Assembly: GCF_009728935.1 (NCBI RefSeq)
Contig: NZ_CP034235.1
Coordinates: forward strand, 6,275,501-6,339,500
Length of the DNA stretch: 64,000 nt
Reading direction: 5' to 3'
DNA from: Paenibacillus psychroresistens
GTDB lineage: Bacteria; Bacillota; Bacilli; Paenibacillales; NBRC-103111
Positions 20,841 to 63,986 of the stretch are shown here, in pieces (position 1 is the stretch's first letter; every line of letters begins with the position of its first letter). The notes beneath the pieces were generated by a model. The model had not been told where the DNA came from. It saw nothing but the letters and a program-made list of their open reading frames with translations, and made no database searches. A program made the position numbers and the translations under genes.

Positions 20841-21950
<1,110 letters not shown>

Positions 21951-48958: not shown

Positions 48959-49102
48959 GAATGAACTGAGATCACTTAAACAAGGTGCAGAAATGCACCT
49001 CATTTCGGGGAATGAGCCATGATCACTCAAGCAAGGTGCAGATTTGCACCTCATTTCGGAGAATGAGTGGAGATCGTTCAAACAAGGTGCAGAAGTGCTC
49101 CT
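48959..49102. repeat. 51-bp tandem repeat with an internal hairpin (2.8 copies)
   Basis: Units start at 48959, 49010 and 49061. Each contains AAGGTGCAG, three or four bases, then its complement TGCACCT, giving a 7-base hairpin. The third unit loses part of the right arm (gtgctcct) and then breaks off. There is no open frame through it. Confidence 0.85.
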
Positions 49103-49139: not shown

Positions 49140-49670
49140 ATATTGTAACGGTATGAAATATCGTTACAGAATCAGATTGGTTTTAAGTAACCTGCTGTTA
49201 GGATGTTTTTTATCGTTAGAAGGATTTTAGATAGTTGCTGCTTGCTGACACACACGTTGTAACGGTATTAAATATCGTTACAGAACCAGATTGGTTTTAA
49301 GTAACCTGCTGTTGGATGTTTTTTATCGTTAGAAAGATTTTAGATAGTTGCTGCTTGCTGACACACACGTTGTAACGGTATGAAATATCGTTACAGAACC
49401 AGATTGGTTTTAAGTTACTGCTGTTAGGATGTTTTTTATCGTTAGAAGGATTTTAGATAGTTGCTGCTTGCTGACACACACGTTGTAACGATATGAAATA
49501 TCGTTACAGAACCAGATTGGTTTTAAGTTACTGCTGTTAGGATGTTTTTTATCATTTGAGTGACTTTAGACGGTTATTGTTTGTAGACACATACGGTGTA
49601 ACGGTATGAAATATCGTTACAGAACCAGATTGGTTTTAAGTAACCTGCTGTTAGGATGTTTTTTATCGCT
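49140..49670. repeat. 113-bp tandem array of palindrome-bearing units (5 copies)
   Basis: Five units carry a 25-base palindrome starting at 49144, 49258, 49371, 49484 and 49597, so the period is 114, 113, 113 and 113 bases. The palindrome has 11-base arms around 3 bases (left arm TGTAACGGTAT or TGTAACGATAT). Each unit then has ACCAGATTGGTTTTAAGT and a second, weaker dyad around GATGTTTTTTATCG. The array fills the space between the LCP gene terminator and hemL. Relatives of it are at 63476-63750. Confidence 0.92.
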
Positions 49671-49718
49671 ATAGAAATATTTTGAGTAATTCATTTTAGT
49701 TACAAGGGGAGATACTTA

Positions 49719-63414: not shown

Positions 63415-63455
63415 AGAAGCTGAAGACTATGACTAGTTTTCGGCTTCTTTTTTTC
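63415..63455 (+). terminator. Terminator after the aldo/keto reductase
   Basis: AGAAGCTGAAGAC pairs with GTTTTCGGCTTCT (G.T pairs) around a seven-base loop, followed by seven T. Confidence 0.85.
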
Positions 63456-63475: not shown

Positions 63476-63500
63476 TGTAACGCCAGTTTCTGGCGCTACA
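63476..63500. repeat. Single 25-bp palindrome of the array family
   Basis: The arms are 11 bases around TTT, left arm TGTAACGCCAG, the same 11-3-11 geometry and end sequences as the array at 49140-49670 but with a different inner stem. It is flanked by an outer pair (GTCGAG on the left and CTCGTCGAG on the right). Confidence 0.8.
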
Positions 63501-63559
63501 GCTCTCGTCGAGCTCATAAGTAAAGAACAAACTCATCCTGCGGGCTCGCTTCAACCTCA

Positions 63560-63772
63560 ACCTAACAATATTAAATATCTCTACAGCCGATTACTTTAAC
63601 TAAACTAGCTCTGTAGCGATATTTTTTATAGCTACAGCATGGTACTCAACCAATTCCCATCTCCAACTTCCACCCTAACAATATTAAATATCTCTACAGC
63701 CGATTACTTTAACTAAACTAGCTTTGTAGCGATATTTTTTATAGCTACAGCACGGTACTCAACCAAATTCCA
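63560..63772. repeat. 113-bp tandem repeat, two copies, related to the array
   Basis: The palindrome with left arm TGTAGCGATAT starts at 63612 and again at 63725, a period of exactly 113 bases. Each unit also has AACAATATTAAATATCTCTACAG-type sequence (bases from 63562 and 63675), aligning with the first palindrome of the array at 49140. The rest of 63500-64000 holds no open frame that I can support. Confidence 0.88.
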
Positions 63773-63950: not shown

Positions 63951-63986
63951 TAAAAAGACCGTTAAGCCACTTAGCTCAACGGTCTA
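63951..63986 (-). terminator. Terminator of a gene beyond the right edge
   Basis: AGACCGTT and AGC pair with GCT and AACGGTCT around six bases. On the minus strand it is followed by TTTTTAATG, so it probably ends a minus-strand gene lying to the right of the window. Confidence 0.7.

What the first reader, a model, noticed from the sequence alone, without database searches (positions are those of the whole stretch)
63476..63750. Same palindrome family 14 kb away with compensatory arm changes
At 63476 the palindrome has left arm TGTAACGCCAG and a right arm that matches it. The tandem pair at 63612 and 63725 has left arm TGTAGCGATAT. All use 11-3-11 geometry and keep TGTARC at the ends, while the inner stem changes on both sides together (for example GTAT to CCAG). 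The tandem pair keeps the 113-base period, and its flanks align with the array at 49140. Covariation means the fold, not the letters, is under selection. I know no named repeat family with these features.
Basis: partly seen in the sequence, partly recalled or inferred. Interest (0 to 1): 0.75.

Follow-up and report, generated by a model that had tools for sequence, protein, structure and literature searches.

The report
Helically phased palindrome arrays in Paenibacillaceae
Between genes in many soil bacteria related to Paenibacillus sit rows of short mirror-image DNA sequences spaced five, six or seven turns of the double helix apart, whatever their letters, which suggests that something recognises them on one face of the DNA.

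Summary
Each 113-bp unit holds two 25-bp palindromes, spaced 51 bp and then 62 bp. The window pair is really four palindromes (63561, 63612, 63674, 63725), lying between two facing terminators. The 8.1-Mb home genome holds about 11 such intergenic loci.

Gap searches over 105 family genomes and a GTDB-wide scan show one rule. Across 41 groups of differing spacers the modal spacing is only 51-52, 61-63 or 72-74 bp, i.e. 5, 6 or 7 helical turns; hits from other organisms show no phase. Palindromes with other stems (AAAGCG, GTGTCGA, GGTGCA, GTAACGCC) also sit 51 bp apart. Orthologous loci in five close species show empty, solo, four- and about 13-palindrome states.

So palindromy plus helical phase is what is conserved. 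This favours a DNA-level structure (phased protein-dimer sites or cruciforms, built like a resolvase res site) over an RNA fold. The covariation claim is weak: few two-sided changes, no consistent G-U bias, and template switching could mimic it. I found no described family with this geometry. It is REP/BIME-like, but no Y1 transposase was found. Binding protein, function and spreading mechanism are unknown.

The parts
63476..63500 (.). Solo palindrome TGTAACGCCAG-TTT-CTGGCGCTACA (GTAACGCC sub-family)
   Evidence: 5 copies in the genome, three at 51-bp spacing elsewhere. It starts 85 bp before the next palindrome at 63561, about 8 helical turns.
63561..63585 (-). Imperfect palindrome P1, first of the four-palindrome element
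   Evidence: Starts 51 bp before the palindrome at 63612; same place in aligned units
63612..63636 (-). Palindrome P2 TGTAGCGATAT-TTT-TTATAGCTACA
   Evidence: covariance-model match at G000:C1:6339059-6339138 minus, E 4e-13 (the model was built with this copy in it)
63674..63698 (-). Imperfect palindrome P1, third of the element, 62 bp after 63612
63725..63749 (-). Palindrome P2, fourth of the element, 51 bp after 63674
63415..63448 (+). Terminator-like hairpin of the aldo/keto reductase gene, pointing towards the element
   Evidence: Consensus scan; gene family Aldo_ket_red
63956..63985 (-). Terminator-like hairpin facing the element from the other side (convergent GFO_IDH_MocA gene beyond the window)
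49144..49683 (+). Array of five 113/114-bp units; strong palindromes at 49144, 49258, 49371, 49484, 49597, each with a weaker one 51-52 bp later
48969..49102 (.). Neighbouring 51-bp tandem array with another palindrome (AGGTGCAGAAATGCACCT)
   Evidence: a further 7-copy array of this type at L117:10328-10703

Best explanation
Intergenic arrays of 25-bp dyad-symmetric DNA sites whose centres are kept an integral number of helical turns apart (5 turns within a pair, 6 or 7 between pairs). Shown: intergenic location, palindromy, spacing restricted to about 51, 62 and 73 bp across differing spacers and several palindrome sequences, tandem gain and loss between close species, and single-palindrome states at orthologous loci. 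Inferred: the phase is kept because proteins (homodimers on each palindrome, or a structure-specific protein on extruded cruciforms) sit on one face of the double helix and contact each other, building a higher-order nucleoprotein complex. In geometry this works like the res site of a serine resolvase. The arrays grow and shrink by duplication or deletion between palindromes. The protein, and what the complex does (recombination, nucleoid structuring or supercoil handling), are not identified.
For: Gap search over 105 genomes: listed spacings at 50-53 and 61-64 although 42-71 was allowed, reversed control zero. Across named species 41 spacer groups with modes only at 51-52, 61-63, 72-74; best period 10.5-10.8 bp; hits in other organisms have no phase. 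Lineage-level R 0.94 at 10.5 bp, n 25. A second palindrome type, AAAGCG, obeys 50-52 in three genera. Tandem arrays of 1.26 Mb outside coding repeats have period 51 or 112-114 with one exception. All 13 loci examined intergenic, none between divergent genes. The window element lies between facing terminators, so it need not be transcribed. Published res sites: 5 turns generally, 4-7 allowed, phase important (PMC12217951).
Against: No binding protein found; no recurrent gene beside the arrays. Several unrelated stems would need several proteins or a structure-reading one. Length constraint is only about two- to three-fold over short times (10 length changes against 18-32 expected). Palindromes decay at some loci. 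Many spacer groups share descent, so the p-values overstate independence.
Confidence: 0.48

Rival explanations
1. A selfish or neutral REP/MITE-like repeat. Palindromes prone to replication slippage, template switching or an unknown mobilising enzyme duplicate in tandem. The fixed spacing reflects the ruler of that machinery or inheritance from an ancestral element, not a host function.
For: Patchy distribution (13 of 105 genomes); presence/absence and copy number differ between close species; whole palindrome-to-palindrome modules are lost; hybrid arms hint at common descent of the palindrome types.
Against: Inheritance alone does not explain why long spacers changed only by whole turns (62, 73) or why several stem types share 51 bp. 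No Y1 transposase in the genome; no match on plasmids or phages.
Confidence: 0.28
2. Active or former recombination sites of a serine or tyrosine recombinase: each palindrome pair is a res-like site, and unit loss is site-specific recombination.
For: Same geometry as res sites: dyad subsites of 25-30 bp, 51 bp centre to centre, 4-7 turns allowed, 114-bp res in Tn3 (PMC12217951, PMC9943657). Losses end at palindromes and can leave one palindrome.
Against: Many dispersed copies per chromosome would be dangerous if active. Palindrome centres vary and lengths are odd, unlike the 2-bp crossover of serine resolvases. No linked recombinase gene.
Confidence: 0.09
3. A structured RNA (tandem hairpins in transcripts).
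For: Two-sided changes at a few pairs and a covariation score above 498 of 500 shuffles; G.T excess in the weak palindrome of the home genome.
Against: Helical quantisation of spacers is hard to explain in RNA; G.T against A.C is not consistent between palindromes and species; the window element sits between facing terminators; no Rfam match at gathering score.
Confidence: 0.08
4. Ordinary tandem repeats with no constraint; the shared spacing is descent from a recent common unit.
For: Short spacers share a weak motif (TTAGTTGA) between the home genome, G001 and P. lupini.
Against: Spacers are otherwise diverged beyond recognition while length keeps to whole turns; other stems show the same 51 bp.
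Confidence: 0.07

Closest known systems
REP / BIME / REPIN repeats with RAYT (Y1) transposases
   Same: Short intergenic palindromes, dispersed, in pairs and clusters with preferred spacings (71 and 110 bp in P. fluorescens SBW25, PMC3116915), patchy between species
   Different: No Y1 transposase in the home genome; no one-sided GTAG or CGTC tag, the palindrome is symmetric; spacing is quantised by whole helical turns and shared by different stems
res sites of Tn3-family serine resolvases
   Same: Dyad sites of about 25-30 bp, 51 bp or 5 turns between sites I and II, 4-7 turns allowed, phase important (PMC12217951)
   Different: Many dispersed copies, tandem arrays, no linked resolvase gene found, different sequences
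CRISPR arrays
   Same: Palindromic repeats of about 25 bp separated by spacers of fixed length
   Different: Few units, alternating spacer lengths, spacers homologous between units of an array, many loci
Bacterial MITEs such as bcr1 of the Bacillus cereus group
   Same: Dispersed non-coding intergenic repeats (named in PMC3733652)
   Different: No terminal inverted repeats or target duplication recognised; what is shared is geometry rather than sequence

Membership tests
REP/RAYT system | Y1 (HUH) transposase in the genome | tested here: not met
   PF01797: no match in the home genome; the same search rings in 5 of 14 control genomes
REP/RAYT system | One-sided GTAG or CGTC tag beside the stem | tested here: not met
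   TGTARC is mirrored on both ends of the strong palindrome
REP/RAYT system | Dispersed intergenic palindromes avoiding promoters | tested here: met
   13 of 13 loci intergenic, 0 divergent
Tn3-type res site | Dyad subsites at an integral number of helical turns | tested here: met
Tn3-type res site | Adjacent resolvase gene | tested here: not met
   Recurrent neighbours are only common paralogues, mainly a sensor/AraC-like protein and an oxidoreductase
Tn3-type res site | Binding and recombination by a recombinase | not testable with these tools
   Needs experiments
CRISPR array | Unique spacers between identical repeats | tested here: not met
   Spacers within arrays are homologous to each other
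MITE | Terminal inverted repeats, target-site duplication and clean empty sites | tested here: inconclusive
   Empty orthologous sites exist but flanks are too diverged to define ends; no duplication seen
Rfam RNA families | Score above gathering threshold | tested here: not met
   None in the window; only weak sub-threshold chance-like matches elsewhere
Conserved structured RNA | Covariation above expectation and strand-consistent G-U pairs | tested here: inconclusive

The most novel reading that the evidence does not exclude
A class of chromosomal DNA element whose conserved information is not a sequence but the helical phase of palindromes (5/6/7-turn spacing), read by a structure-recognising protein or a recombinase and used to build repeated nucleoprotein assemblies along Paenibacillaceae chromosomes.
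Probability: 0.3. Interest if true: 0.87.

Novelty: new variant of a known kind. Interest (0 to 1): 0.72.

Why it matters
If confirmed, spacing rather than sequence would be the heritable signal, so ordinary homology searches would miss the family. The arrays would be a natural assay for how a protein or a cruciform reads the face of DNA. They also warn that two-sided stem changes are not proof of RNA structure. Copy number changes quickly between close species, so they matter for assembly and strain typing too.

Tried and rejected
Rfam: nothing at gathering score. RAYT origin: no Y1 transposase. Gene association: only common paralogues. Plasmids and phages: no match; viral-contig hits have mostly other spacings, 69 bp the commonest. 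RNA-strand test by G.T against A.C mismatches: first looked positive in the home genome (25:2) but did not hold when more copies and species were added. GTGTCGA pattern in relatives: found only in the home genome. Literature: no description found, in an open-licence library only. The first Rayleigh p (about 1e-16) treats related spacer groups as independent; the lineage count (n 25, p about 2e-10) is safer but still approximate, and its list of lineages was compiled by hand.

Full report
OBSERVATION. The palindromes at 63476, 63612 and 63725 exist. TGTARCG-N11-CGYTACA with up to two mismatches occurs eight times in the window against 0.37 expected. The arms match imperfectly: 10 of 11 at 63476, and 9 of 11 at 63612 and 63725. 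The tandem period is 113 bp in both arrays.

ANATOMY. A unit holds two palindromes: a strong one (P2), 26-27 bp of spacer, an imperfect one (P1), and about 37 bp of long spacer. Start-to-start distances are 51 and 62 bp, adding to 113. The window element is P1 63561, P2 63612, P1 63674, P2 63725, read on the minus strand. Its unit matches the 49-kb unit only in reverse complement (62%, score 26.5 against a shuffled maximum of 17).

HOME GENOME. A covariance model of 80 positions finds about 11 loci in the 8.1-Mb chromosome, mostly arrays of 2-5 units. Of 13 loci examined (including a related 51-bp array and two diverged ones) all are intergenic: 7 between convergent genes, 6 codirectional, 0 divergent (by simple ORF calls). 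The window element lies between an aldo/keto reductase and a GFO_IDH_MocA oxidoreductase, with a terminator-like hairpin on each side pointing towards it.

THE SPACING RULE. A pattern of two ACGAT-N7-ATCGT palindromes with any gap from 25 to 54 bp was searched in 105 genomes of the family. It hit 13 genomes (145 pairs in G030, 53 in G081), with zero hits for the reversed control. Listed spacings sit at 50-53 and 61-63, with rare values beside them. Grouping 146 pairs by spacer similarity gives 41 groups with modes only at 51-52, 61-63 and 72-74; the best period is 10.5-10.8 bp, and hits in other organisms show no phase (R 0.22, p 0.16). Reduced to lineages and palindrome types (n 25), R is 0.94 at 10.5 bp. 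These groups are not fully independent, so the p-values are indicative only.

SEQUENCE INDEPENDENCE. In 1.26 Mb of the home genome, tandem arrays of period 30 or more outside genuine coding repeats have period 51 or 112-114, with one exception (126), while coding repeats have many periods (some 51-bp arrays carry chance open frames, since 51 is a multiple of three). The 51-bp arrays carry several other palindromes. AAAGCG-N7-CGCTTT occurs as 113 pairs in the home genome, 24 in G096 and 2 in G065, three genera, and the listed rows are all 50-52 bp although 43-72 was allowed. GTAACGCC, the stem of 63476, forms a 51-bp array at 4.496 Mb.

DYNAMICS. At one locus P. glycanilyticus NBRC 16618 has 13 palindromes, two relatives have one pair and two have none. 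At a second locus NBRC has four, BK033 three decaying ones, P. lupini a solo palindrome, mu1 a half remnant and MERTA38 none. A third is occupied in all five species, with P. lupini 4, MERTA38 about 12-13, mu1 1, NBRC 4 and BK033 5 palindromes. A fourth is occupied only in NBRC. P. eucommiae copies differ by whole palindrome-to-palindrome modules. Spacers drift by substitution; length changes number 10 where 18-32 would be expected from local non-coding DNA.

DNA OR RNA. Helical phase is a double-stranded property. Covariation among the 19 units is modest. Mismatch bias on one strand is not consistent. Template switching during replication can make and repair stems (PMC8794818), so compensatory changes do not prove RNA selection.

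MECHANISM. I favour phased dyad sites on one DNA face, bound by dimers or by a structure-reading protein. The nearest described geometry is the resolvase res site: 51 bp or 5 turns between sites I and II in SGI1, 4-7 turns allowed, phase important (PMC12217951). It works like a res site in geometry; membership fails because no resolvase gene is linked and the copies are dispersed. REP/RAYT membership fails because no Y1 transposase is present and there is no one-sided tag. The binding protein, the activity and the spread are unknown.

LIMITS. The literature library is open-licence only. The exact-core patterns miss diverged copies. The stretches of the home genome used for the census were partly chosen around arrays. 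The binding step and any function are inference.

Noticed in passing
   Followed up: partly
L134, L135, L138, L150, L151, L162, L183, L184, L209, L219, L232 (Prevotella sp. RGIG8630): Inverted pairs of GAGACGATG..CATCGTCTC palindromes with TTGT/ACAA outer ends, spaced 49-53 and 63-64 bp: perhaps an independent, helically phased REPIN-like element in another phylum (p about 2e-4).
   Followed up: partly
L063:1209-1728 and about 12 aligned copies in G030 (P. eucommiae): A mosaic dispersed element of about 500 bp that carries the four-palindrome module plus a long AAAGATTTGTTC/GAACAAATCTTT inverted repeat.
   Followed up: partly
L142, L147, L152, L194, L223 (Saccharopolyspora) and eight viral contigs such as L245: A recurring ACGAT..ATCGT pair spaced exactly 69 bp (about 6.6 turns); unrelated to this family, not examined further.
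   Followed up: no
window 21259-21813: Long 18/27/45-bp repeat inside an open frame, resembling the collagen-like coding repeats elsewhere in this genome.
   Followed up: no
L022 near position 1400 and the 8-copy array at G000:C1:7235348: Hybrid palindromes (TGTAACGCCA with TCGCTACA; TTTAAAGCGG with CCGCGTTACA) that look like intermediates between the sub-families, hinting at common descent of the arm types.
   Followed up: no
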